A stretch of DNA of 44,333 nucleotides from a virus, in the IMG/VR virus record IMGVR_UViG_3300044624_003294, positions 1 through 44,333 of that record, one strand, 5' to 3'. The translations under genes were made by a program, and so were the position numbers. Positions 6,662 to 44,333 of the stretch are shown here, piece by piece. Position 1 is the first letter of the stretch. Every line of letters starts with the position of its first letter. The notes beneath the pieces were generated by a model. That model made no database searches. It saw only the letters and a program-made list of their open reading frames with translations, and had not been told where the DNA came from.

Positions 6662-7588
6662 TTACTTTAGTTCGCCAAAGGTCTTCTTAATAGCAGGCTT
6701 AGCCTTTGCTACAGCAGTAATAAAGTCCTCTAGAGCTTTTTGATTACCGTTAAAGTATTCGGTGTTAATGTAAACACCTGCTTGCCAAGCAACTGTGTCT
6801 GAACCACTAAACCAACCAGACTGGAGGTTAATTGGATAAGTGCCACTTGGAATTGTCTGCCAACGATATAGCGTTTTGCCATCAATGTTGGTAGCATCGT
6901 TAAAGTCCATGTCATTAGCACCAACTAGGTTGATACTATCACCAAAGTCTGTATCGACTTGGATAACTGTGGCATTGCCAACAGCAGCAGGCACTAGCAT
7001 ACAAGTTGTGGTATTACTAGCAACGCTTGCCATTGCAATTGCGCCTTCCTCGTTAGTGACTTGAACTTCTGCATAGCTCTTGTCTTCTGCGATGAAATTC
7101 TGCCAAATTAGCCAAGCACCAGACCCGCTTGCACCGAGCGCAATACTCTTATTATTATCCCCGGCGAGATCGCTGAGATCATCAACGCCTGATTCCTTGC
7201 TACAAAGTACATGAAGGAATTCACGTGGTCCAGAACCAATAATACGTAGCTTGGTAGCAGCAGCAGGGTTCTTACGCTTTAGAAGAACAGCACCATCTGG
7301 CTGACCAATAAATGCATGGCAAGATTCACCATTAGCTACAGTTTCAGGCGTAGCAGTTGTTAGCACCGTGCGTTCAATATTGTCCCATGTGCCCTTGCTG
7401 GTAACAACATTAATTTCAGCATTGCGACTATCACGCATGAAGCTAGCAATATACTGTCCTGTTTCGTTATAGGGCTTACCTTCGCCACCAGTACAAAGGT
7501 TGATCTTCATCTTCTCAGCAGCGTTAGCACTTCCTACAAAAAGAGCAAGACCAACAGCAGCACTAACCATAAAAGCAGACTTAAGCAT
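6662..7588 (-). CDS. TAXI-type periplasmic solute-binding protein
   Basis: 308 residues from the ATG at 7588, chosen because AAGGA sits nine bases upstream; an ATG at 7594 is too close. The signal peptide (LKSAFMVSAAVGLALFV, cleavage at ANA-AE) is clear. The mature N-terminus (INLCTGGEGKPYNETGQYIA) resembles the TAXI/NMT1 family of TRAP-transporter receptors, which bind small organic acids in the periplasm. No membrane permease is encoded nearby, so the phage would either feed a host transporter or use the protein as a scavenging or blocking decoy. Its start overlaps the upstream SWIM gene. A phage-borne binding protein of this type is unusual. Confidence 0.7.
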   Translation of the reverse strand: MLKSAFMVSAAVGLALFVGSANAAEKMKINLCTGGEGKPYNETGQYIASFMRDSRNAEINVVTSKGTWDNIERTVLTTATPETVANGESCHAFIGQPDGAVLLKRKNPAAATKLRIIGSGPREFLHVLCSKESGVDDLSDLAGDNNKSIALGASGSGAWLIWQNFIAEDKSYAEVQVTNEEGAIAMASVASNTTTCMLVPAAVGNATVIQVDTDFGDSINLVGANDMDFNDATNIDGKTLYRWQTIPSGTYPINLQSGWFSGSDTVAWQAGVYINTEYFNGNQKALEDFITAVAKAKPAIKKTFGELK

Positions 7589-7982
7589 TAACATTTTCCT
7601 TCTTTTCATCAACGTGCTTGCAGGACCGCCGGAATTGGAAGCCTGGGCATGTACATTCATAACGACCGTGGTCCAGTGTCACGGTATAAGTTTTATCCTT
7701 AGACCCCTGGACGGTCCAAGTTTTTGATTCAGTCTTGCTTGGAGCAACAACTGTATCTTCAAATCCTACTATACGCTCTAGATCAATTACACGCAAGTCA
7801 AATTTTGGATCATCATTGGTTAGCCCAATTTGACCAGGCTTAATAGCACGATGATTGCTAACCACTTGACCTGTGTAGACGTTAAACTCTGGAATGTGTA
7901 CATAACTCGCATATGCTTTCCTCATTGGCCAAATTGGATTACGAACTTTGATTGTAACAGTTTCACCAGCGTTAAGCTGCAT
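7581..7982 (-). CDS. SWIM zinc-finger protein
   Basis: 133 residues. The C-terminus carries YECTCPGFQFRRSCKHV, a C-x-C-xn-C-x-H SWIM finger, a zinc-binding module that mediates DNA or protein binding. The N-terminal part looks beta-rich. The start at 7982 is supported by AAGGAG eight bases upstream; a GTG at 7991 is the alternative. It overlaps the neighbours on both sides by 8-11 bases. Confidence 0.7.
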   Translation of the reverse strand: MQLNAGETVTIKVRNPIWPMRKAYASYVHIPEFNVYTGQVVSNHRAIKPGQIGLTNDDPKFDLRVIDLERIVGFEDTVVAPSKTESKTWTVQGSKDKTYTVTLDHGRYECTCPGFQFRRSCKHVDEKKENVNA

Positions 7983-30906: not shown

Positions 30907-30982
30907 TGGTGCTGTTAGAGAGATTCGAACTCCCGACCTGATGATTACTAATCAACTGCTCTACCAACTGAGCTATAACAGC
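30907..30982 (-). tRNA. tRNA-Thr (AGU)
   Basis: Acceptor GCTGTTA/TAACAGC, D-arm GCTC/GAGC, loop TTAGTAA giving anticodon AGT, T-arm GAGTTCGAATCTC, encoded CCA. There is a T-T mismatch in the anticodon stem. A34 in a Thr tRNA is unusual for bacteria. It closely resembles the neighbouring tRNA-Thr (UGU), suggesting duplication. Confidence 0.8.
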
Positions 30983-31511: not shown

Positions 31512-32123
31512 TTAAGACTTTGCAAGCTTATTTTTTAGATAAGCTAAAAGTATACCATATGCTGGCAAGAATACTACCCAACCAATTACAAGCTTAGTAA
31601 TGGTTTGATTCCATGCTACTAAATGCCAATTTTCTGCCATAAATGCGTCTGCACCGTTGGCAAATCCAACATAGAAGAATGTGTAGGTGTCGATAAAGTT
31701 AGCAGCAACCATACTAATTGCAGGTGCCCACCACCAGCCTGTCATACGTTCACGGATATACTGGAACACATAAACATCAAGCATAGTGCCAACTAGATAA
31801 GCAGTACCGCTTGCAAAACCAATTCTAAAAGCTACGCTGGATGGCGCACCTTCTGCTAGAATTACTAGGATAGATACAATTACTGCGGGAATATAAGAAA
31901 ATGCTACAACTGCTCGTCCAAGCTCTTTACCAAGTAATCGAACAGTTAGATCTGTTGCGACAATTACTAGTGGGAAAGTGAAGGCAGCATAAGTCAATGG
32001 ATGACCAGCAAGTTCAAAAGGAATAGTTACTAGGAAATTGCTGATAGCAATGACTAGCGTGTGAAACAATACTAGTTTGGCAACTAGCGTACGGTCCACC
32101 CCTTCAAGTAGTTTAGATATCAT
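31512..32123 (-). CDS. YhhQ/QueT-type queuosine precursor transporter
   Basis: 203 residues, six hydrophobic spans. FTFPLVIVATDLTVRLLGKELGRAVVAFSY and FRIGFASGTAYLVGTMLDVYVF match the YhhQ (DUF165, vitamin-uptake-like) family, which imports preQ0, preQ1 or queuine. YhhQ genes occur in phages that place 7-deazaguanine in DNA or maintain Q in tRNA. No dpd-type or que-type modification genes are in this window. A promoter lies at 32171-32199. Confidence 0.85.
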   Translation of the reverse strand: MISKLLEGVDRTLVAKLVLFHTLVIAISNFLVTIPFELAGHPLTYAAFTFPLVIVATDLTVRLLGKELGRAVVAFSYIPAVIVSILVILAEGAPSSVAFRIGFASGTAYLVGTMLDVYVFQYIRERMTGWWWAPAISMVAANFIDTYTFFYVGFANGADAFMAENWHLVAWNQTITKLVIGWVVFLPAYGILLAYLKNKLAKS

Positions 32124-33266: not shown

Positions 33267-34106
33267 TTAGTTTTTGTTTGTAATATTCAAATATTGATTT
33301 AGATATACAGGTCGTATAAACAAAGCAGGTGCACTAAACCAAACTTCTGTAGTTGCAGGTGCACTAAAATTACTAAGAGATTCTATTGTAAATTCATATT
33401 TTTTAGGATTTAATAACTTATTAAATCCATCAACTAGTGTTGTATATTTAAGTAAAGACTCAGTAAAATAACTTCCATCTTCGGCTATTTGTTTAAAATG
33501 CTTTTTATACTTCAGTTTTAAGTTATCTAATAGTGTTAGAGTTTGAAAAAATTCTTTTTTTGTATCTGGCAAATGTGGAGGCAATTTTATTTTTTTATCC
33601 TTACTCTCCAATAAATATTTTAAATTATCATAAAAATCATTAAAGTCATCGTTTATACTATCAGGTCCGCCAAATTCATGCATTGAGTCAAACCAATCGT
33701 CAGAAGGACATATTCCAATTACTGGATCTCCAAATGGCAAAACAACAAAATAATCACCATAATGTCTCGCATCTTTATAATTTGTAGTACAAATTAATGA
33801 ACGATTTCTTGGAGGATATGCTGACCAACTTGGCAAATTGCTTTGTAATAAATTCATATAATTGAAAGTGTTAGCAGCTTTGCGTTCAACTTTTGTTGGA
33901 TCAACTAACAACATAGAACTTTTGTTTGGAACACCACGATAAATAATTTTTCCATTAAGATAAGCGTTAATTGCCGTTTTTAATTTAGGTTTATGTTTTT
34001 TGAAAAAAGTTTCCAATTCTCTTTCTGGTGCAGGTTTAGAAACTTTTTTCGCATATTCCTTTCTTTCAGGATCAGTTACAGCTTCTGTTAAATCAAGAAT
34101 TTTCAT
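33267..34106 (-). CDS. ADP-ribosyltransferase-like protein, divergent paralogue
   Basis: 279 residues. MKILDLTEAVTD matches the capsid-targeting-like motif with L-T-E as a possible prohead-protease site. IIYRGVP (R57), RSLICTTN and a C-terminal TTEVWFSAPALFI give the R, S-T and E positions of the ART fold, in the same order as the genes at 38203 and 41353. This suggests mono-ADP-ribosyl transfer, as with T4 Alt. There is no Shine-Dalgarno; TAATAAATA lies four bases before the ATG. The ART assignment is inferred from motif order, not from strong identity. Confidence 0.5.
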   Translation of the reverse strand: MKILDLTEAVTDPERKEYAKKVSKPAPERELETFFKKHKPKLKTAINAYLNGKIIYRGVPNKSSMLLVDPTKVERKAANTFNYMNLLQSNLPSWSAYPPRNRSLICTTNYKDARHYGDYFVVLPFGDPVIGICPSDDWFDSMHEFGGPDSINDDFNDFYDNLKYLLESKDKKIKLPPHLPDTKKEFFQTLTLLDNLKLKYKKHFKQIAEDGSYFTESLLKYTTLVDGFNKLLNPKKYEFTIESLSNFSAPATTEVWFSAPALFIRPVYLNQYLNITNKN

Positions 34107-34109
34107 ACT

Positions 34110-35231
34110 TTATTTATTAGAGTTTGGTGGTTCGTATACTTTATTGTGTGTATTATTTACGCGAATAAACGATGTGCGCTTACTAAGTTCTTTTAACTTA
34201 CTAGCACCAACATATGTACAAGTTGAGCGTAGTCCGCCTAAAATATCTTGAATAGTTGTTTCAATAGGCCCTTTAAAAGGAATTAAAACTTCTCGGCCTT
34301 CACTAGCACGATAATTTTTTAAACCACCAAAGTGTTTTTCATTTGCAGCTTGGCTACTCATACCATAAAACTTTACATATAATTCTTCCCTATTGATATG
34401 ATATCCGTGCTCATCAAGTTCATTTGTTTGATACATTTTTTTAACAATAGCGCCACCGCCTTCATCATGCCCTGCTAACATGCCCCCAAGCATAACAAAG
34501 TCTGCGCCGGCGCCAAATGCTTTTGCTACATCACCAGGACTAGTGCAACCACCGTCAGCACTAATATGTCCACCGAGGCCATGAGCTGCATCTGCACATT
34601 CGACGATCGCAGAAAGCTGGGGATAGCCCACGCCAGTCTTAATACGAGTAGTACAAACACTACCAGGGCCAATACCGACTTTAACAATGTCTGCTCCATT
34701 TAAAATTAACTCTTCTGTCATTTCACCAGTAACAACATTACCAGCAATGATGGTTAGATTTGGATATTTGTCTCTAAATTTCCACACAAAGTCAACAAAC
34801 TTTTCACTGTAGCCATTAGCAACATCAATACAAATAAAATTGATACTGCGATTAACACCATCAGGATCTTTTGTTAATTCATAAACTTTATCAAACTTTT
34901 CTAAATCAGTTTGAGTAATTCCTAGGCTATATGCCCAATTGTTTTGTTTGTTAAATCCAAGAGTATAAATCCATTCCTGCAGATCTTCAACGGAATAATG
35001 TTTAACTAAACAAGTAAACATACCATACTGTGCTAAAACTTCGGCAATAGTAAAAGTACCAACGCCATCCATGTTAGCAGCCATGATTGGAATACCTTTA
35101 TATGTTTGCTTGCTATTACGAAAAACGAACTCTCGTTCTAAACTAACTTCACTTCTGCTAGCAAGTGTTGAACGCTTGGGACGAATTAATACATCTGAAA
35201 AATCTAATTTGAGGTCAGTCTCAATACGCAA
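34110..35231 (-). CDS. guaC: GMP reductase
   Basis: 373 residues, alignable from the first residue with E. coli GuaC ([20 protein letters not shown]). [24 protein letters not shown] with catalytic C193, and [20 protein letters not shown] are IMPDH/GMPR signatures, and MDGVGTF near residue 54 fits GMPR. It converts GMP to IMP with NADPH. The start is a TTG, eight bases after AGGAA; no ATG is available nearby and the homology begins exactly there. About 25 residues longer than E. coli GuaC. It follows tRNA-Ser by 16 bases. Confidence 0.92.
34111..34119 (-). promoter_or_regulatory. T4-late-like promoter box (TAATAAATA)
   Basis: TAATAAATA on the minus strand, four bases before the ATG at 34106, overlapping the stop codon of GMP reductase. 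Confidence 0.6.
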
Positions 35232-35247
35232 AATAATTTCCTATTGT

Positions 35248-35335
35248 TGGCGGAAGGGGTGAGATTCGAACTCACGGTACCCTGCGGTACTTCGGTTTTC
35301 AAGACCGACGCGATAGGCCACTCTGCCACCCTTCC
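35248..35335 (-). tRNA. tRNA-Ser (UGA)
   Basis: A long tRNA with a variable arm (about 16 bases with paired GTACC/GGTAC). Acceptor GGAAGGG/CCCTTCC, anticodon stem TCGGT/ACCGA with loop CTTGAAA (anticodon TGA), T-arm GAGTTCGAATCTC, discriminator G, encoded CCA. Confidence 0.93.
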
Positions 35336-35553
35336 AATATCAACAATATAAACTAAACACTTAAGTTTAGCAATTAATAATTGCCGGTAACACAAACTGC
35401 GAATAGTCCTGTGCTCAACCTGGTGCCCGGCAGCACCGCCCTCCAAAACAACCCACCTAGCTTATTTTCCACTTTAGACTAGAGGGTGGAGGCCTAGTGA
35501 TATAATGCGACTAGTGGAAATTCATAGCCATTGCATTAGGAATCGCTCTAGGG
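35336..35553 (-). ncRNA. structured 218-base non-coding stretch before tRNA-Ser
   Basis: No plausible gene. Reading the minus strand, several arms can pair: CTAGT/ACTAG, GTGC/GCAC, CACA/TGTG and a longer-range TGCCGG/CCGGCA. The last competes with the GTGC hairpin. An imperfect CCACT/AGTGG pair encloses the first. It lies between the radical SAM gene and tRNA-Ser in the same orientation, so it may be a processed leader or a separate small RNA. No known family was recognised. Confidence 0.4.
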
Positions 35554-37086
35554 TTATCTTAGTAATGTTTTTATTTTTGCAAATTCGTAATAATATTCTT
35601 CTAGAGAAACTAATTTATCATCAACTTGAACTGAAAATGTTTTTGTATTATCTATTATCTTTGCAAATTCGTTACATTCTTCTTTAAGTCGATTTCGTAA
35701 TTTATCAACAAGATCAACAAATTTTATTTTTTTGTAATATGCATGTAAAAAATTATATACCGATGCCAATGCAAACATGGTTAAAATATCTGAAAAATCA
35801 GCAGAAATAGAAGAAGTAATCATTCTTGTTTTATACCAACCTTGTAATCCATTCTTGACTGCAAAATTAATTTCATCGTATGATTTAAAATCTTTCTTTA
35901 TGAAGATTATTTCATCAAATTTAATTTGATGTTTCTTTTGATAGTCTGCTTTGTAAGCAGGACTACCAGGTAACATCATCCAAAGATTAGCTTCTAAATA
36001 ATTTATACCGATATTTTCTAATTCTAATAGTGTATCTATCCAAGTATCTATAGTTTGGCCTGGAAGTCCAATAATTAATTCTGCTCTTAATTCGAGATCG
36101 GGGTGCTTTTGTTGCAATTCTTTTATTAACTTTTTATGTTCACTCCACGGCGGACTTGGGCGATCTATATTTTTTAAAACATCTTCATTTAAATCTTGTA
36201 AACTAATAACAAATCTACCTTCTGGAAAGTATTGATAACTTAATGACATTAATTCGTATGCAGTTTTTTTATTAAGCTTTGGTAAGTTCATTGCAGTGAA
36301 TTGTAACTTGGGCAATGCATATTTGTGTATTTCAATGTCTTCTTTATACATTCCCCAGTTTGCATCAATTACTCTAACTTCTGCCCCTAATTCAGAGAAA
36401 AAATCAATTTCTTCTTTCCAATTTGATCTACGTCTCTTTACTTTATTGTGTAAACTATTATTCCAATCACAAAAGCTACAGGAATACGGACAACCTCTTG
36501 CCATTTCCCAATAAATTACTGAATTGTCTTTTCCAAAAAAATTAATAGTTTCTGCAACTTCTTTTTGTAAGTCTAACCAAGGACTAATTTTAGAGAATTC
36601 ATCATCTTGAAAAATTCGAAAAGGAAAGATTTTATTTGGAGTTACAATGTTATAAGCATTAATCAATTCTTTCTTTTCTATTATTGAATCTAATAAAGTA
36701 ACAAATGCTTCTTCCCCGTCACCATAAACAACATAATCAAACATATTGTTATTATCAAAAAATGTTGGGTTTCGATGAGCATCTAAATCGGGGCCGCCAG
36801 CGATTATTATAACATTTGGCATTTTTTCTTTTATCATTTTAGCCAAATGAGTTAACTGAGCTCTGTTCCAAATAAAAATACTTAAACAAAGAACATCAAT
36901 TTTTTCATGTTGAATATTATCAAAAATTTCCTGTACAGATTTATTTCGATCGTATATTGTTTCTCCCCATTCAACTTTGTTTTTATTATTTCCTCGAAGG
37001 TTATAATACGATTTCAAAATAAAATAGATTGGACTTATAAAGATTTTAGTGCCTGGAGAACCAGTGGCTATAATTTTTACTTTCAT
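35554..37086 (-). CDS. B12-domain-type radical SAM protein
   Basis: 510 residues. An N-terminal Rossmann-like part (VLCLSIFIWNRAQLTHLA, IIIAGGPDLDAHRNP, YVVYGDGEEAF) looks like the cobalamin-binding domain of B12-dependent radical SAM enzymes but lacks the DxHxxG histidine. CPYSCSFC at 199-206 is the C-x3-C-x2-C that holds the 4Fe-4S cluster. Later ELIIGLPGQTIDTW is the usual ELP-type motif. The reaction is unknown. It is next to a second radical SAM gene, 27 bases apart. Confidence 0.8.
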   Translation of the reverse strand: MKVKIIATGSPGTKIFISPIYFILKSYYNLRGNNKNKVEWGETIYDRNKSVQEIFDNIQHEKIDVLCLSIFIWNRAQLTHLAKMIKEKMPNVIIIAGGPDLDAHRNPTFFDNNNMFDYVVYGDGEEAFVTLLDSIIEKKELINAYNIVTPNKIFPFRIFQDDEFSKISPWLDLQKEVAETINFFGKDNSVIYWEMARGCPYSCSFCDWNNSLHNKVKRRRSNWKEEIDFFSELGAEVRVIDANWGMYKEDIEIHKYALPKLQFTAMNLPKLNKKTAYELMSLSYQYFPEGRFVISLQDLNEDVLKNIDRPSPPWSEHKKLIKELQQKHPDLELRAELIIGLPGQTIDTWIDTLLELENIGINYLEANLWMMLPGSPAYKADYQKKHQIKFDEIIFIKKDFKSYDEINFAVKNGLQGWYKTRMITSSISADFSDILTMFALASVYNFLHAYYKKIKFVDLVDKLRNRLKEECNEFAKIIDNTKTFSVQVDDKLVSLEEYYYEFAKIKTLLR

Positions 37087-37113
37087 ACTATTATATATTC
37101 TTCTTTAAACAGT

Positions 37114-38193
37114 TCATTTTTCTTGTACTTGCCAATTTTCAAAATTAAAATAATGTTGACGATGAGAATTAAGATATTCAGTATGAGACTGCAATAATTT
37201 TATATCGTGAGTAGGATTTGCTTTTAAACTAAGTTTTAACATTGTTTGCAATTGTTCATTGTCTTTAGTTTCATCGATTGCTTTTTCAATAACCCACTTT
37301 GGTGCATTACGAACTGCTAGTAACTCTGGATGTAAAAGTAAATTAAAATTGATATTTGATTTAAACAATTTAACTAAATCTTTTAAATTTAATAAATTAT
37401 GAGCTTGGACAACTGACGTAACTATACATGAAACATTTTCAATTTTTTGCATTTTTAAATAATTGGTTGCTATTTGTTTAAAACTTAAATTCTGTCTAAT
37501 CCATTCATTTGTTATACCTGTGCCATCGATGCTAAAAATAACCTGTATTTTTAAAAATTTTTCAAAAATAGCTAATTGTTTTTTATTGGGGAAAGTATTG
37601 CCGTTTGTAAGTATTAATAATTCTAAATCTTTATTAGCAACTGTATCAAGGAAATTCCATAATTTTTTATCTAAAAATGGCTCACCGCCGAGTATTTTTA
37701 ATCTTTTTGAAATTGAAATCGCATCTTTTAAATTTTGAATTGCATCTTTATCAAATGGCAATTCTATCCCTTCATTGCCTAGGGTAAAATAATTTTGGTC
37801 TGGATCCGGAAATTCTTTAAGTCTGTTTGCAATACTAGTACTCCATCGCGGTCCACACATAATACAATCGCTGTCACAGATTGATCCACTGTTAAAATGA
37901 ACTATTGGACTTGTTCCATTTTCTTTTTCGATATTGATTTCAGATAAACGAGTGCTCGGTAATCCAACTTTTTCTAACCACAAACAACCTTCGCAGCCCA
38001 CAGGCCATTGCTCTTTATCAACAGATTGTATCAGTTTTTGACGATATTCACTGTTTAAAAAATCTTTTAAACTAGTTGAAGAAATACCTAATTTACTAGA
38101 TAGATTTAAATTACGTACACTGCAAACATCATAATCTCTGTTAGGAGTAAATGCTATACCGTTTTTAATTCTTGGACAATAAAATTTAGTCAT
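37114..38193 (-). CDS. radical SAM protein with twitch/SPASM-type architecture
   Basis: 359 residues. GSICDSDCIMCGPRW carries C106, C110 and C113 (C-x3-C-x2-C). ILGGEPFL is the GGE SAM-binding motif, and ILTNGN and VIFSIDGTG follow as in SPASM/twitch enzymes. An N-terminal extension has extra cysteines (VGCEGCLW) for a possible auxiliary cluster. Such proteins modify peptides or small molecules, and the family is seen in marine phages without a known substrate. There is no Shine-Dalgarno and the start is close to the end of the ART-like gene. Confidence 0.8.
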   Translation of the reverse strand: MTKFYCPRIKNGIAFTPNRDYDVCSVRNLNLSSKLGISSTSLKDFLNSEYRQKLIQSVDKEQWPVGCEGCLWLEKVGLPSTRLSEINIEKENGTSPIVHFNSGSICDSDCIMCGPRWSTSIANRLKEFPDPDQNYFTLGNEGIELPFDKDAIQNLKDAISISKRLKILGGEPFLDKKLWNFLDTVANKDLELLILTNGNTFPNKKQLAIFEKFLKIQVIFSIDGTGITNEWIRQNLSFKQIATNYLKMQKIENVSCIVTSVVQAHNLLNLKDLVKLFKSNINFNLLLHPELLAVRNAPKWVIEKAIDETKDNEQLQTMLKLSLKANPTHDIKLLQSHTEYLNSHRQHYFNFENWQVQEK

Positions 38194-38202
38194 ATTTAAT
38201 AA

Positions 38203-39183
38203 TTAAAAATATATATTGCTTGCTTCTATTTTTAATGCCTTAAGTATATATTCACCTAATTTTGATTCGGTACTTATGGCATAATATTCGCCAGCGATCA
38301 TGACTTCGTTTCCGCTTTCCACTGCTCCAACGAAATCTTTGTTTGTTGCTTCAAGATCATCGTTTATAAAAATGTAGTTTATCAATTTTTTTAAAGTTAT
38401 GCTTTTTGCTTTTGGATAACCTAACTTGGCAATTGCTGCAATAAATTTATCTATTTCATGTGCTGCATCATATGGATCGTCGTATTTCCAATTTAAGTCT
38501 TTTTTTGTCTTTTTATAATACCATTCACTAACATCCATTATTATTTCTTCAATATATCCTATGTCTAAAACTTCACCAATGCTGTCTAAAACTAGATCAG
38601 GATTTCCTGGTGTCCAGTGAAAAGCAAATCCATTTTTTGGAAAAATGTAATATAGATCTCCATAACTTGAAGCTTGACTGCCGTCGCTGGTAGTAAAAAT
38701 ACTGTTTGATCTTAATGCTTTAAAGCCCATTGATTTGAGTGCCATGTCATAAAGTTTTTGAGCAGCAGCACTGCTGTCTTTTGGTTCTCTGTTATTATAG
38801 CTGCGTCCCATAAATGCTTTTGGTTTACCGTTTGTCCCGCGAAGCAATACTGTATCTGTTTTGCGATAGACCGAAATAACTTGGCTACATTCTTTTGCTA
38901 TGTTTTTTACTAACGCATCTACTGCTGGATTTTTAGCCTGTTTGGTATTTTGTAGTTTTACAATTTCTTGTTTAGTATTGTTAATTTCGTTTCTTATTTT
39001 TTGAATTAAACTATCAAATTCTTTTTTGGCAAGTTTAAGTACATCTGATCCCATTGTAGATGCCTTGTCAAAATGATATTGGGTATTATTGAGCTTTTCT
39101 AACTTATTTTCTAATGCTTCAAGTCCTTTAAGCTTTTCAAACTTTATTTTTAAATCTTTTATCTGTCCTGGTTTTAATGGCAT
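38203..39183 (-). CDS. ADP-ribosyltransferase-like protein without targeting peptide
   Basis: 326 residues. N-terminal helices with PGQIKDLK as in its paralogues, a coiled-coil segment (about 55-80), then LLRGT (R115), SIFTTSDGSQASSYGD (163-178) and GNEVMIAGEYYAIS with E293. These occupy the R, S-T and E positions of the ART fold. The paralogues at 40308 and 41353 have an extra 5' peptide (capsid-targeting-like) before PGQ. Here an in-frame stop lies a few codons upstream, so it is truly missing. The intact triad suggests activity. Confidence 0.55.
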   Translation of the reverse strand: MPLKPGQIKDLKIKFEKLKGLEALENKLEKLNNTQYHFDKASTMGSDVLKLAKKEFDSLIQKIRNEINNTKQEIVKLQNTKQAKNPAVDALVKNIAKECSQVISVYRKTDTVLLRGTNGKPKAFMGRSYNNREPKDSSAAAQKLYDMALKSMGFKALRSNSIFTTSDGSQASSYGDLYYIFPKNGFAFHWTPGNPDLVLDSIGEVLDIGYIEEIIMDVSEWYYKKTKKDLNWKYDDPYDAAHEIDKFIAAIAKLGYPKAKSITLKKLINYIFINDDLEATNKDFVGAVESGNEVMIAGEYYAISTESKLGEYILKALKIEASNIYF

Positions 39184-39207
39184 TTTCCAATTATCCTGTT
39201 GATGAAA

Positions 39208-39216
39208 TATTTATTT
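39208..39216 (-). promoter_or_regulatory. T4-late-like box (AAATAAATA)
   Basis: AAATAAATA on the minus strand, about 24 bases before the ATG at 39183, with AGGA in between. A weaker match to the late consensus. Confidence 0.4.
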
Positions 39217-39232
39217 GTTATATACTATTAGC

Positions 39233-39634
39233 ATGAAAATTAAAAAAACAAAAGCGGCATTCATCCCATATTACAAGGACCAAGTACTAGTTGCTCTCAG
39301 TAGCAATCCAATGTTTGGTGGTCCGCACTTTGCTCTTTGTAAAGGGCAAATTGACGAAGGTGAAACTGTTGAACAAGCAGCTATCCGTGAAGCGGAAGAA
39401 GAACTGGGCCTTAGACAAAGTAACCTAGCTGGTCCAGTTAAGCATCTTGGTAACTTTAGGACATTTGGATATATTCTGTCCGTTTACTTTGCTGAAGTAA
39501 AAGATCCTGATGCATTTAATTTACCTTGCTGGGAAATTGCTGAGACTAAGTGGATGACTTGGCAGGAATTTCGTTCTGTTGGGCGGGAGCAGCATCGTCC
39601 GATTGTTGATTCATTTTTCCAGCAGTTGACTTAG
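39233..39634 (+). CDS. Nudix hydrolase
   Basis: 133 residues from the ATG at 39233. The Nudix box runs from G38 to L60 and fits G-x5-E-x7-REUxEExGU exactly (DEGE, then IREAEEELGL). Members hydrolyse nucleoside diphosphate derivatives such as NADH, ADP-ribose, Ap4A or mRNA caps. Given the ART-like proteins around it, ADP-ribose or NAD metabolism is an attractive guess. Its last 89 bases overlap the end of the convergent P-loop kinase gene. Confidence 0.88.
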   Translation: MKIKKTKAAFIPYYKDQVLVALSSNPMFGGPHFALCKGQIDEGETVEQAAIREAEEELGLRQSNLAGPVKHLGNFRTFGYILSVYFAEVKDPDAFNLPCWEIAETKWMTWQEFRSVGREQHRPIVDSFFQQLT

Positions 39635-40274
39635 CAGCTAGTTGTGCTTGCATCCATTCCTTAGCAGCAGGTTTACTTGGCTTTTGTGCTAACCAACGAT
39701 CCATTGTGCTAGCCACATATTTTATATTTGGATTTGGTCTGTTATTATCTACAATGAAGAATTGACCACCAAACATAGCTTGTAGCGCACCCAATCCTTT
39801 TTGAGTCTTTTCCCAAGCATCTTGAACAAATGATGGATCTATTTCACGACCAAGATCTTTACCTGCACTCTTGGCTCTGTTTATAACTCTATCCATGCTT
39901 ACATCTAAACTTGTGTTTACAAACACCATAGCAGTATCATACCCGAGGCTTTCTAAATCAGCTTTAACTTGTGCCATACGCTCTGGATTCTTAGCAGTGC
40001 CATCAATAATTAAACCTAATCGTCCTGCTAGAAAGTTCTTTTCTTGAACTTTGTATAGTTCCCAATAACGGCTATAATTGCCCTGCTTTCCTAGACCTTT
40101 ATATAACTGCCAAAAGCTATCAACATTTAAGACCTTAAGCCCAGTACCTCCAAATAGCTTATTTGCTATTGTACTTTTGCCCGCACCTGGGCTTCCAGCC
40201 ATAAAAACAGCTTTAAAAATGTGTGGATCGTAAACGCCTTCTTCTACAGGCGCGATTAATTCAGTAATAAGCAT
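39546..40274 (-). CDS. zeta-toxin-like P-loop kinase with capsid-targeting-like N-terminus
   Basis: 242 residues from the ATG at 40274. MLITELIAPVEEG strongly recalls the N-terminus of the T4 Alt protein (MELITELFDE). Walker A GSPGAGKST at 27-35 follows AVFMA, and LIIDGTAKNPERMAQV and FVNTSLDVSMDRV fit zeta-toxin or AAA_33-type kinases that phosphorylate nucleotide sugars, nucleic acids or nucleosides. The C-terminus is low-complexity (Ala, Gln, Ser). TAATAAATA lies eight bases before the ATG; no Shine-Dalgarno. Confidence 0.7.
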   Translation of the reverse strand: MLITELIAPVEEGVYDPHIFKAVFMAGSPGAGKSTIANKLFGGTGLKVLNVDSFWQLYKGLGKQGNYSRYWELYKVQEKNFLAGRLGLIIDGTAKNPERMAQVKADLESLGYDTAMVFVNTSLDVSMDRVINRAKSAGKDLGREIDPSFVQDAWEKTQKGLGALQAMFGGQFFIVDNNRPNPNIKYVASTMDRWLAQKPSKPAAKEWMQAQLAAKSTAGKMNQQSDDAAPAQQNEIPAKSST

Positions 40275-40282
40275 AGCAGCAT

Positions 40283-40291
40283 TATTTATTA
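40283..40291 (-). promoter_or_regulatory. T4-late-like promoter box (TAATAAATA), leftward
   Basis: TAATAAATA on the minus strand, eight bases before the kinase ATG at 40274. With the box at 40295 it forms a divergent pair only three bases apart. Confidence 0.55.
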
Positions 40292-40294
40292 CTA

Positions 40295-40303
40295 TAATAA
40301 ATA
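40295..40303 (+). promoter_or_regulatory. T4-late-like promoter box (TAATAAATA), rightward
   Basis: TAATAAATA on the plus strand, four bases before the ATG at 40308. No Shine-Dalgarno. Confidence 0.6.
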
Positions 40304-40307
40304 TTAC

Positions 40308-41342
40308 ATGCGTTACAATGATCTCATAACAACTCCTGCTGAGCTTTTTGAAGCACAACTAACCCCTGGGCAAGTCAAAGCAATTAAACTTCAAATTAAT
40401 GACTACGAAGAAGAATTACGAAAACTCAATCGTAAAAAGAACGAATTAGATGACAAGTTTATGTATGGCACTTTTCCTAAAGAGCTGAAAGATAAAGTTG
40501 ATGCTTATGTTGCTGCATACACAAAAGCTATTGATGAGCTCAAGGATAAAATAAAACAAGCTAATGTTAACCCTCAGTTTGATAACTTTATAGCTGGTAT
40601 TAAAAAGAATTGTAGTGACATAGTGAGTACATATCAATATAGAGGTAGAGTTTTTTACTCTGGATTTAAAAACGCCGGACAACCTGCATTGTATGGTAAA
40701 CCTTCTGCTCATTTAAATCTAGATGATTACCGCGGGGCTCGCAATGGTGCTGAAATTCAAAATCTAATTGAACTCTTATATGATAACATGAGTTTTGAAA
40801 ATGCAGTCTTTGCCACATCTGATAGTTACGAAGCTAGCAGTGATGGTAGAACTCCATACATTATTTTCCCTCGCAATGATTTTAAATATTTTTGGCCACA
40901 GGAGATAACCACACTAGGGTATCCATCACATGCATTAAATAAGTTATTTGATCCTGACTTGTTAAGAGATGCTTGGAAAGTATTTGTGGGCGATACAAAA
41001 ATGTTTGCTGAATTTAAAAAAGCAGGGGCAGAACTTAGTTATCCAGCAGAAGAATATATTGGCACAGCAGATGGATTTATGGGCAGGTACGAGTGGGAAA
41101 GTCAAATACGGGCTTTAAATAAAATGTTTGAAAACGGTACATTGCCAGATGGTTGGGATAGAATGACTAGTTGGACTAGTTGGGTCAGTAGAGAAAGTTT
41201 TAATACTATATTTGACATGAAAACAGATGATCTTGAACGAGTATTAAGTTATGGTCATGATTGCATCATTAACACTAGTGGCATCTATGCTATACACAGC
41301 AAATTTAAGAATCAAGTTTTTAAAGCATTAAACATAAGCTAG
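40308..41342 (+). CDS. ADP-ribosyltransferase-like protein, apparently inactive
   Basis: 344 residues. MRYNDLITTPAELFEAQLTPG includes a capsid-targeting-like start with L-F-E as a possible prohead-protease site, then the shared PGQVKAIKLQI helix. The motifs align with its paralogues but are altered: VFYSGF has S118 where others have Arg, AVFATSD replaces the S-T motif, and GHDCIINTSGIYAI has Asp for Glu. That suggests a pseudo-enzyme, possibly structural or a partner to the gene 10 bases downstream. Confidence 0.55.
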   Translation: MRYNDLITTPAELFEAQLTPGQVKAIKLQINDYEEELRKLNRKKNELDDKFMYGTFPKELKDKVDAYVAAYTKAIDELKDKIKQANVNPQFDNFIAGIKKNCSDIVSTYQYRGRVFYSGFKNAGQPALYGKPSAHLNLDDYRGARNGAEIQNLIELLYDNMSFENAVFATSDSYEASSDGRTPYIIFPRNDFKYFWPQEITTLGYPSHALNKLFDPDLLRDAWKVFVGDTKMFAEFKKAGAELSYPAEEYIGTADGFMGRYEWESQIRALNKMFENGTLPDGWDRMTSWTSWVSRESFNTIFDMKTDDLERVLSYGHDCIINTSGIYAIHSKFKNQVFKALNIS

Positions 41343-41352
41343 GAATTTTTGA

Positions 41353-42405
41353 ATGTTATTACAAGACCTTTTTGAAAAAATTGAACCTGGTCAGAGGAAA
41401 GCTATTCAGCTACAGATTGACAAGTATGAACGAGCAATAAGAGATATTGAAGATCAAGAAGCAAACTTGTCGTCTTTAGATTACGACGATTATAAAATTG
41501 CAGGTGCTGAAAAAGAACTTGAGGATCTCAAGCAATCATATCAAAAGTATGTGGATGATTTAAAATCCAAACTTGCCTCAGCCAAGCAAGGTAAAGGTGC
41601 TGATAGTTTTGAGAAATATATGGCTGCTATTGTCCGTCACTGCCCAACTATCGTTGCTGCCTGTAAGTCAACTGGTAAACTTTTATATAGAGGCACTAAA
41701 GAAGATGCTCCTGCATTTTATGGCAAACCATTTAATGAAAGAGTTGCTAAAGATAGCAGCAGTACGATGCATGATGCTTGGAATCATGCAATGGATCAAA
41801 TGGGCGTCGTAGCTAGACGTGATAACAGTATCTTCACTACTACTAGTAGAAGTTTAGCAAGCAACTTTGGCACTCAAGTTTATATCGTGTTCTTTAGAGA
41901 TCCATTCCATTTTACATGGAGCGACACTGATCGTGATTTGGTATTATCTACCGAGATGATGATTAGAATGGTCAATCCAGAAACTGTTAAAGAAATAATG
42001 GGTTATGTATGGCAAAACGATGAACTAAGAGAAGCTTATAAGACGGTATATAGATACATTAGGATGGAAGGCGCTAGCTACGAAGTAGAGTTTAATGTCG
42101 ATGAATACCCAATTGAAATATTCAATGGTATTTTTAAGAAATACAATTTTCAGCACAGTTTTGAGGCATTAGTACAGATATTGCCTAAACTTCCCCCAGA
42201 GTTTCAAAAGTATAAAGATTTTAATGCCTGGGTTGATCCGCAAACAGTAATTGAAGAATTTGGTCTTCACATAGATGAAGATTTAGAAGGTGCCTTTGAA
42301 AAAGGATATGAAATTACTATTAGAGCTGAATACTACGCTATTAGAGCAGACCTTGAAAAGAAGGTTAAACAATATCTTGGAATGAGTCAGTATTCTAATT
42401 ACTAG
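41353..42405 (+). CDS. ADP-ribosyltransferase-like protein with targeting peptide
   Basis: 350 residues. MLLQDLFEKIEPGQRK has a capsid-targeting-like peptide with an L-F-E site. A coiled coil spans about 20-78. LLYRGTKED (R113), SIFTTTSRSLASNFG (159-173) and GYEITIRAEYYAI (E320) give the R, S-T-S and E positions of ARTs, as in T4 Alt (LYR, STS, EVILPRG). It would transfer ADP-ribose from NAD to host or phage proteins. AGGAA lies ahead of the ATG; it shares the message with the inactive paralogue before it. Confidence 0.6.
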   Translation: MLLQDLFEKIEPGQRKAIQLQIDKYERAIRDIEDQEANLSSLDYDDYKIAGAEKELEDLKQSYQKYVDDLKSKLASAKQGKGADSFEKYMAAIVRHCPTIVAACKSTGKLLYRGTKEDAPAFYGKPFNERVAKDSSSTMHDAWNHAMDQMGVVARRDNSIFTTTSRSLASNFGTQVYIVFFRDPFHFTWSDTDRDLVLSTEMMIRMVNPETVKEIMGYVWQNDELREAYKTVYRYIRMEGASYEVEFNVDEYPIEIFNGIFKKYNFQHSFEALVQILPKLPPEFQKYKDFNAWVDPQTVIEEFGLHIDEDLEGAFEKGYEITIRAEYYAIRADLEKKVKQYLGMSQYSNY

Positions 42406-42406
42406 T

Positions 42407-42754
42407 TTACTTTTTCTTTTTGTGGCCAACTACTACCATGTTCACTACACAAACTCCTTTACAGCCAATTTTTCTAGCAGCAGCCTTGCTTAGATCAATA
42501 GTTCTGCCTTTTGTAAAAGGTCCACGATCATTGATGCGTACCGTGACGCTACGACCTTTATAAGTTACACGAACTAATGTGCCAAACTTTAAAGTCTTAT
42601 GTGCGGCAGTCATTGCATTTTGATTAAATCGTTCACCGCTAGCAGTTTTGCGTCCATGAAATCCAGGACCATACCAACTTGCTTTAACTTTTGCAGCTTC
42701 TGCTGGAATAATAAAAAGTCCTATTGCTAGAAAAATAGATAGTAACAGTCTCAT
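42407..42754 (-). CDS. exported RlpA-like protein (double-psi beta-barrel)
   Basis: 115 residues from the ATG at 42754, with AAAGGA upstream; the longer frame to 42793 lacks this. Signal peptide [56 protein letters not shown] and [21 protein letters not shown] are classic RlpA motifs; relatives cleave denuded glycan strands of peptidoglycan at septa. Likely a lysis or envelope-remodelling protein in the periplasm. It lies just after the giant RNA's terminator. Confidence 0.88.
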
Positions 42755-42784
42755 TTGTTTTTCCTTTCGTTTGAGACTGAAGCA

Positions 42785-42830
42785 CAAAAACAAAAAGCGC
42801 CGTTAGTTGATATTACTCAAACTAGGCGCC
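42785..42830 (-). terminator. rho-independent terminator of the giant non-coding RNA
   Basis: GCGCC/GGCGC and TAGTT/AACTA arms form a long stem, followed on the minus strand by TTTTTGTTTTTG. It ends the minus-strand transcript that begins near 43875 and separates it from the RlpA gene. Confidence 0.75.
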
Positions 42831-43194
42831 TGTTTATTAAAGTGTTTCAGCGTATGGTGAGATTACCCATACAGTGCTAAGTCTTCGGACCTTACGACCT
42901 AACCTTGCGAGTTAGCTTAATCCGACATCCACTCTCTCCGGCCACGAAGGGCATTTGTGAGAAAGTATCCTAGCAGTGTCGCCGTTTTTAGAGTCAGGCA
43001 TTAGACTCGTCGTTGAATGCTACTCCACACTATCTACACCGTTAGCCTTGCGAGCTATTCACTTCCGCTAAGAAGTTACGACGCTTCCTGTATGAACTAA
43101 CTAGACCTTGCGGGTTTCGTTAGGCTTAGTTACCTTGCGGCCTAAGCATTTGACACCTTACACATTCAACCGGAGCAGTCTTTGCAATTTTATA

Positions 43195-43266
43195 ATCAAC
43201 AGAGGGAGTTGAACCCACTACCGATCGCTTATCAATGCGATTGCTCTACCAATGAGCTATGTTTGC
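43195..43266 (-). tRNA. degenerate tRNA-like element, Ile (GAU)-like, inside the giant RNA
   Basis: The D-arm (GCTC/GAGC), anticodon stem ATCGC/GCGAT and a T-loop of GGTTCAACTCC are present. But only about four of seven acceptor pairs form, the anticodon loop has eight bases (ATTGATAA), and there is no encoded CCA. It is more likely a structural module of the giant RNA than a working tRNA. Confidence 0.55.
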
Positions 43267-43867
43267 AACCTACTGTGACGTGCTGCTCCAGTTGCTTCAT
43301 ATCTTGTTAGATACAAAATACAACACGCCCTCTCGCCTTTTGCCTTGCGGGCTACTAAGCGTCACTTCTAGTTTTGGATGTTTCACTCTCTTGAGCTACT
43401 CAACCCTCTACTATTGTGATGGTAATTTGCCTTTCCACGCGAATGGTCAGACTATTACCTACCTGTTAGTATTCAAGTACACGTTACTTTGGCTTGTGTA
43501 GGCTAAAGCGCCAACCCTATTTGACCTCACCGAACGGCTCTGGTCATGTCCTTTCGGACCTACACAGTAACTTTCTACTCTACTGCCATCCTACTGGCAG
43601 GACTTGCTTTCGCTAGTGCGAGTCAAGTCTAACTCAGGCTTGTTTAGGTGGACATATTGCTATGCGCTGCTATGTAGGCTTTGCAGCTTTGGGCACATCG
43701 CTGTGCTTATCCTAACGAGGCTAAACCCCCAAACTTGAAACAGTATTTGCCTGGCATATGAGGCGCGATCCTCATATTTTATGCGAATGGCAACTATCGT
43801 CTATACAGATAACTTTTGCCTACTGTTAACTCTGCGCTGTAATTTCTAACTTTCGTTATTTGCTACA

Positions 43868-43922
43868 GCGTCTATTTTCTTAATATACAGTCTTTTATTT
43901 TATTTGCAATTACTATTTTGGA
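43868..43922. repeat. 55-bp imperfect direct repeat, copy A
   Basis: About 46 of 55 positions match copy B at 43982-44036, ungapped. It holds the promoter nearest the giant RNA and ends with TTTTGGA, the same bases that form the CCA end of tRNA-Arg in copy B. Confidence 0.8.
43882..43909 (-). promoter_or_regulatory. promoter nearest the giant RNA
   Basis: TTGCAA, a 16-base spacer ending in CTG, then TATATT on the minus strand. The start site would fall near 43875, just before the first GNRA-capped stem of the RNA. Confidence 0.6.
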
Positions 43923-43981
43923 CTTTTATAACTTTTTTAATTTTGCTATATTTTTCGTGCTGCGGAGTGTTCGTATCCTTA

Positions 43982-44036
43982 GCTTCTATTTTGATAATAT
44001 ACAGTCTTTTGTTTTTAATGCAACAACTATTTTGGA
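43982..44036. repeat. 55-bp imperfect direct repeat, copy B
   Basis: Partner of the repeat at 43868, starting 114 bp away. It runs directly into the 3' end of tRNA-Arg, suggesting that a tRNA end and promoter were duplicated together. Confidence 0.8.
43996..44023 (-). promoter_or_regulatory. upstream tandem promoter of the giant RNA
   Basis: TTGCAT, a 16-base spacer ending in CTG, then TATATT in repeat copy B, ten bases past the tRNA-Arg CCA. It provides a second start for the giant RNA independent of tRNA transcription. Confidence 0.5.
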
Positions 44037-44109
44037 GCCTCTGGAGAGATTCGAACTCCCGACACTTGCGTTCGAAGCGCAATGCTCTGATCCACTGAGC
44101 TACAGAGGC
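44033..44109 (-). tRNA. tRNA-Arg (UCG)
   Basis: Acceptor GCCTCTG/CAGAGGC, anticodon stem TTGCG/CGCAA with loop CTTCGAA (anticodon TCG), T-arm GAGTTCGAATCTC, discriminator T and encoded CCA. The stop codon of the next gene upstream is inside its 5' end region. Confidence 0.93.
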
Positions 44110-44333
44110 GTGTTAGGTAAACTATCATGTCCTAAAAAATCAATAATTTTATTATCAGATAAGTCAAGTTGTTGAATTTCCTGCAACACAACATCTTTGT
44201 ATTTTTGAACATATTTTAATACAAGATCACCAAAATCATCACTATGTTTACTGATAGCAGAAATACCGCCGTTTTTGACATGAATTCGCAAATCATCTTT
44301 TTTTATGCATTGACTTAACTGGGCTAATGAATT
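44100..44333 (-). CDS. C-terminal part of an unidentified protein (cut by window edge)
   Basis: Open to the right edge, at least 77 codons. Contains QYIKKDDL-type charged sequence, VKNGGISAISKHSDDFGDLV and a C-terminal DLSDNKIIDFLGHDSLPNTPL. The stop TAG lies at 44100-44102 within the tRNA-Arg 5' region, so processing must separate the two. A short frame starting at a TTG inside is not needed. No family is recognised. Confidence 0.5.
   Translation of the reverse strand, partial: NSLAQLSQCIKKDDLRIHVKNGGISAISKHSDDFGDLVLKYVQKYKDVVLQEIQQLDLSDNKIIDFLGHDSLPNTPL

What the first reader, a model, noticed from the sequence alone, without database searches (positions are those of the whole stretch)
42785..43875. 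Giant phage non-coding RNA of GOLLD/ROOL type with its own promoters and terminator
About 1.1 kb without a gene shows a complete transcription unit on the minus strand: tandem promoters, a 5' stem with a GAAA tetraloop, five CGCAAGG stem-loops, many local hairpins, an internal tRNA-like element and a strong terminator. Giant ornate RNAs of phages are often next to tRNAs; this one is directly after tRNA-Arg. It may be a divergent member or a new class.
Basis: partly seen in the sequence, partly recalled or inferred. Interest (0 to 1): 0.88.

Follow-up and report, generated by a model that had tools for sequence, protein, structure and literature searches.

The report
Phage GOLLD RNA with tRNA-like insert
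This phage carries a roughly 1,100-nucleotide RNA of the known GOLLD family, whose studied relative builds hollow RNA cages; in its variable linker it holds a tRNA-shaped piece that comparison with related phages shows is kept in shape but is probably unfit for protein synthesis, so it looks like a tRNA mimic, not a tRNA gene.

Summary
Window 42854-43329 (-) matches Rfam GOLLD (RF02032) over the whole model: 184 bits, cut-off 150, E 8.5e-52. The RNA runs from about 43875 to 42786, with a conserved promoter-like segment, a 5' hairpin, a variable 5' domain, the conserved 3' domain and a terminator. In 25 related full-length RNAs, 158 of 212 predicted pairs have changes on both sides; column shuffles destroy this. 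So this is a new, divergent member of a known family, not a new class.

The less expected part is the insert at 43194-43266. Relatives carry a tRNA-like module in the same place. Across 29 distinct modules the anticodon, D, T and inner acceptor stems are 96-100% paired with covariation, while the three outer acceptor pairs are at shuffle level (45% against 44%) and none is followed by CCA. Stand-alone tRNAs on the same contigs have CCA in 174 of 178 cases. Two RNAs differing at 2 of 834 backbone columns carry different modules, so the module moves as a cassette. I read it as a tRNA mimic, expected inside the RNA cage; its partner is unknown.

The parts
42786..43875 (-). whole GOLLD RNA, about 1,090 nt; start and end predicted from promoter-like site and terminator
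   Evidence: ends not measured
43882..43909 (-). proximal promoter-like site: TTGCAA, 16 nt, TATATT
   Evidence: chance-level as a pattern; conserved in the sister phage
43867..43922 (-). promoter-bearing segment, first copy of a direct repeat
43981..44036 (-). second copy of that segment (84% identical), absent from the sister phage
43835..43870 (-). 5' leader hairpin with GAAA loop; the sister has CGCUGU..ACAGCG with a GCAA loop
   Evidence: (z -4.5)
43330..43739 (-). 5' domain of GOLLD (not covered by the Rfam model)
   Evidence: 88 pairs, 71 with compensatory changes; energy -73.6 against -0.2 in column shuffles
42854..43329 (-). 3' domain of GOLLD, Rfam RF02032, model 1-416
   Evidence: 184 bits, cut-off 150, E 8.5e-52
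43194..43266 (-). tRNA-like module in the linker: 4-bp inner acceptor, D, anticodon and T arms; outer acceptor pairs not kept; no CCA
43229..43236 (-). 8-nt anticodon loop AUUGAUAA of the module (AUUUCAA, 7 nt, in the sister)
42786..42829 (-). Rho-independent terminator: GCGCC/GGCGC stem and U tract
44033..44109 (-). stand-alone tRNA-Arg(TCG) upstream

Best explanation
A GOLLD noncoding RNA of a large T4-related phage. Shown here: membership by the covariance model, and two covarying domains. Inferred: it is made from its own promoter during infection, ends at its own terminator, and like the solved env-38 GOLLD assembles with itself into a closed cage. Shown by comparison: the linker, which in env-38 is disordered and lies inside the cage, here carries a tRNA-shaped module under selection for its D, anticodon, T and inner acceptor stems but not for a chargeable acceptor end. 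Inferred mechanism: each subunit holds a tRNA mimic, probably facing the cage interior, as bait or ligand for a factor that recognises the tRNA body or anticodon arm. Modules are exchanged as cassettes, so the ligand changes while the scaffold stays.
For: Full-length RF02032 match. 212 predicted pairs, 158 with both-side changes in 25 RNAs; energies -73.6 and -124.5 for the two domains against -0.2 and -4.2 in column shuffles. 28 further tRNA-bearing loci all pass the GOLLD cut-off, as do Sinorhizobium phage Phosso and a Thalassospira contig. Module stems: anticodon 145/145, D 114/116, T 141/145, inner acceptor 111/116 paired, 0 of 2000 shuffles as good; outer acceptor 39/87, shuffle mean 44%. 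CCA 0 of 29 against 174 of 178 stand-alone tRNAs on the same contigs. Loops other than 7 nt: 5 of 27 against 3 of 178, Fisher p 0.001. Cassette exchange: L268/L270 differ at 2 of 834 columns outside the slot and 31 inside; L269/L270 share a 92% identical slot on 67% identical backbones. Cage and interior linker: PMC12286853.
Against: No expression data for this phage. Cage assembly is inferred from one solved member (env-38) whose 5' domain may differ: the 5' profile of this subgroup finds only its first ~48 nt in GOLLDs without a tRNA-like module. Four modules (L247, L269, L270 and the Thalassospira one) keep 7 acceptor pairs counting G-U (one search read by eye), so some could be processed. 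Related sequences are not independent. No binding partner is known.
Confidence: 0.68

Rival explanations
1. The embedded element is a real tRNA gene carried inside the GOLLD transcript, excised and charged to serve translation (the cage as tRNA carrier).
For: It scores as a tRNA (41.8 bits); some relatives have 7 acceptor pairs; PMC12286853 speaks of phage tRNAs in the GOLLD linker.
Against: No CCA in 29 of 29 against 174 of 178 neighbours; outer acceptor pairs at shuffle level; loops of 8 and 9 nt, here AUUGAUAA; the module in a Mycobacterium GOLLD was called pseudo and was not detected on blots (PMC6582537).
Confidence: 0.12
2. The element is a decaying former tRNA with no role, tolerated because the linker is unconstrained.
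For: The linker is the most variable part of GOLLD; many GOLLDs have an A-rich linker there instead (consensus); outer acceptor and anticodon loop look unconstrained.
Against: Anticodon stem 145/145 paired with 52 double-change cells; D, T and inner acceptor likewise, 0 of 2000 shuffles as good. Recent insertion with no time to decay is unlikely: the nearest stand-alone tRNAs held are mostly 70-84% alike or match only short pieces.
Confidence: 0.13
3. The module is specifically a decoy against host anticodon nucleases or other tRNA-directed defences (a special case of the best explanation).
For: Loop identity and length vary most, and cassettes are exchanged. Lys-UUU, Asn-GUU and Arg-UCU make up 17 of 24 seven-nt loops against 26 of 306 stand-alone tRNAs. 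The window encodes a T4-type RNA ligase 1 and a kinase-like protein of the sort that mends cut tRNAs. Phage tRNAs are linked to evading such nucleases (PMC10264068).
Against: Indirect only; modules are related by descent, so the enrichment is not a clean test; no nuclease is known for this host.
Confidence: 0.2
4. The region is a chance collection of hairpins or a hidden coding region.
For: Single-sequence fold only z -1.8; promoter patterns at chance level.
Against: Covariance-model match and covariation; no protein match.
Confidence: 0.01

Closest known systems
GOLLD RNA (Rfam RF02032)
   Same: Full-length match to the conserved 3' domain, variable 5' domain, phage location beside tRNAs, variable linker at the expected place.
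   Different: 184 bits where GOLLDs without tRNA-like modules score 260-320; own 5' domain type; tRNA-like module in the linker; 5' leader hairpin.
Sister RNA in IMG/VR contig 3300047548_001285 (L089/L148)
   Same: 86% identical over about 900 nt, same module position, promoter segment and terminator type.
   Different: 7-nt UUC loop, compensated T stem, single promoter segment, no 85-nt leader insert.
GOLLD of Sinorhizobium phage Phosso (PV764938.1, 33533-34001), Bacteriophage DSS3_MAL1 and the CcrMagneto/phiCbK-type Caulobacter phages
   Same: GOLLD over cut-off with a tRNA-like module lacking CCA.
   Different: Modules with other anticodons; annotated only as tRNA-Arg, tRNA-Lys or nothing.
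ROOL RNA
   Same: Large phage RNA near tRNAs that forms cages (PMC12286853).
   Different: No ROOL match at any threshold used.

Membership tests
GOLLD (RF02032) | Covariance-model match over the curated cut-off | tested here: met
   184 bits against 150, model 1-416; single match in the record
GOLLD (RF02032) | Covarying conserved 3' domain with a variable 5' domain | tested here: met
   5' profile weak outside the subgroup
GOLLD (RF02032) | Phage or prophage location, often near tRNAs | tested here: met
   virus record, tRNA-Arg upstream
GOLLD (RF02032) | Self-assembly into a 14-mer cage with kissing-loop and A-minor bridges | not testable with these tools
   shown for env-38 only (PMC12286853); bridges not mapped here
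GOLLD (RF02032) | Expression rising during lysis | not testable with these tools
   no RNA data for this phage
ROOL | Rfam ROOL model match | tested here: not met
   no hit in 42700-44200 up to E 5
Functional tRNA | tRNA fold by covariance model | tested here: met
   41.8 bits, cut-off 29
Functional tRNA | 7-bp acceptor stem | tested here: not met
   G-U, C-A, A-G at pairs 1-3; outer pairs at shuffle level in the family
Functional tRNA | Encoded CCA, as in the neighbouring stand-alone tRNAs | tested here: not met
   0 of 29 against 174 of 178
Functional tRNA | 7-nt anticodon loop | tested here: not met
   8 nt here

The most novel reading that the evidence does not exclude
GOLLD cages of this subgroup are bait chambers: each subunit displays a charge-incompetent tRNA mimic, swapped as a cassette between phages, that captures or blocks a host factor acting on tRNA, such as an anticodon nuclease or a tRNA-modifying or tRNA-charging enzyme.
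Probability: 0.22. Interest if true: 0.85.

Novelty: new member of a known kind. Interest (0 to 1): 0.5.

Why it matters
GOLLD has had no function since its discovery, and its cage structure (2025) raised the question of what the interior linker is for. The comparison here says that in one subgroup the linker holds a selected tRNA mimic, exchanged as a module, not a tRNA gene. That gives a concrete test in cultured phages (Caulobacter phages of the phiCbK type, Sinorhizobium phage Phosso, DSS3_MAL1): delete or swap the module and ask what binds it.

Tried and rejected
The first GOLLD pattern mixed true GOLLDs with many chance hits; 27 of the 50 records checked were GOLLD. A genome-contig scan gave 118 stretches, of which profile search kept one, Thalassospira L300. 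I considered an alternative outer clamp (GGUU pairing with GAUU) closing the module; constrained folds do not show it consistently, so I do not claim it. I looked for recent capture of neighbouring tRNAs as the source of the modules; nearest matches are distant. I considered pattern bias against CCA: the scan allows 12-42 nt between T loop and GCAA, enough for a full acceptor and CCA. ARAGORN needs acceptor pairing to call a tRNA, so the acceptor pairing of the stand-alone controls is inflated; the CCA contrast and the inner/outer contrast within the modules do not depend on it. Pseudomonas phage 30-3, which has the closest clamp loader, has no GOLLD.

Full report
Observation. The 'tandem promoters' are a duplicated 56-nt segment. 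Promoter patterns alone are at chance level, but the proximal segment is conserved in a sister phage.

Identity. The Rfam GOLLD model matches 42854-43329 in full, 184 bits against a cut-off of 150, E 8.5e-52; nothing else large matches. The window is a 44-kb virus fragment with T4-type genes: a clamp loader nearest to those of Pseudomonas phage PA5oct relatives and Phosso at 45-53% identity, RNA ligase 1, and baseplate wedge proteins.

Relatives. A pattern scan of IMG/VR gave 27 records with GOLLD over the cut-off, one of them a close sister (L089/L148, 86% over about 900 nt). A second pattern for a tRNA T arm followed by the conserved GCAA..CU..GUUG gave 26 more viral contigs; these and two cultured phages, DSS3_MAL1 and CcrMagneto, all pass the cut-off. 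Sinorhizobium phage Phosso carries one in an unannotated gap. A Thalassospira contig carries another.

Structure. I aligned 25 full-length RNAs. RNAalifold predicts 212 pairs, 158 with changes on both sides in at least one sequence. Taken apart, the 5' domain has 88 pairs (71 compensatory, -73.6 kcal/mol) and the 3' domain 125 (86, -124.5); shuffled columns give -0.2 and -4.2 on average. The 5' domain, which Rfam does not model, is therefore also a selected RNA structure. Its profile matches non-tRNA GOLLDs only over the first 48 or so positions, which fits the published statement that the 5' region is less conserved (PMC12286853).

The module. At the position of the GOLLD linker these RNAs carry a tRNA-like module. 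In 29 distinct modules the anticodon stem is paired in 145 of 145 cells, D in 114 of 116, T in 141 of 145, inner acceptor in 111 of 116; none of 2000 shuffles does as well. The outer three acceptor pairs are paired in 39 of 87, the shuffle mean being 44%. CCA follows in none, against 174 of 178 stand-alone class I tRNAs from the same contigs. Loops of 8 or 9 nt occur in 5 of 27, against 3 of 178 non-7-nt loops in the controls. In this window the module has mismatches at acceptor pairs 2 and 3 and an 8-nt loop, AUUGAUAA; the sister has a 7-nt loop and a compensated T stem. Two of the 29 (Phosso and CcrMagneto) were parsed by eye because the script's T-loop pattern missed one and the other was fetched later.

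Cassette exchange. L268 and L270 differ at 2 of 834 aligned columns outside the slot and 31 within it. L270's slot is 92% identical to that of L269, whose backbone is only 67% identical. The window's slot is 87% identical to that of L265 on a 59% backbone.

Reading. In the env-38 structure the corresponding linker is disordered and lies inside a 14-subunit cage (PMC12286853). By inference, the module would face the interior. The authors suggested that covalently linked tRNAs might be held there. The data here argue that in this subgroup these are tRNA mimics and not tRNA genes: the body is kept, the chargeable end is not. A Mycobacterium case was earlier called a pseudo-tRNA with no detected product (PMC6582537). 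What the mimic binds is unknown. A defence-related role is one option: loops of the Lys-UUU, Asn-GUU and Arg-UCU type dominate (17 of 24 seven-nt loops), and the window encodes RNA ligase 1 and a kinase-like protein; this remains speculative.

Novelty. The locus is a new member of a known family. Embedded tRNAs in GOLLD were already reported. The quantified mimic character and the cassette exchange are, as far as the papers I could search go, not described; the original 2009 description, the 2020 Mycobacterium GOLLD survey and a parallel cryo-EM paper were not read here.

Noticed in passing
window 33267-42405: A run of metabolic genes rare in phages: IMP dehydrogenase/GMP reductase-like (34110-35231), B12-binding radical SAM (35554-37086), a weak radical SAM (37114-38193), a kinase/zeta-like P-loop protein (39546-40358), and several proteins of phrog_11975.
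   Followed up: partly
window 31512-32123: A Vut_1 (PF02592) transporter; from memory this family includes queuosine-precursor transporters, which would tie to tRNA modification.
   Followed up: no
window 6662-7660: A periplasmic-binding-protein-like gene (NMT1_3, PF16868; phrog_6856), unusual cargo for a phage.
   Followed up: no
window 30907-30982: A tRNA-Thr with anticodon AGT beside a tRNA-Thr(TGT); an A34 tRNA-Thr is unusual for bacteria and their phages.
   Followed up: no
window 42407-42793: A DPBB/RlpA-like lytic transglycosylase gene directly downstream of the GOLLD terminator.
   Followed up: no
L149 (MN602268.1 4875-10091), L150 (JX100812.1 98810-104022), L276 (PV764938.1 32000-35500): GOLLD RNAs in cultured phages DSS3_MAL1, CcrMagneto and Phosso are unannotated; only the embedded tRNA-like part (or nothing) is listed. 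ARAGORN also calls permuted tmRNAs near the first two.
   Followed up: partly
L268 and L270 (IMG/VR): Two GOLLD RNAs almost identical except for the tRNA-like module, while the stretch including their flanks is only 86% alike.
   Followed up: partly
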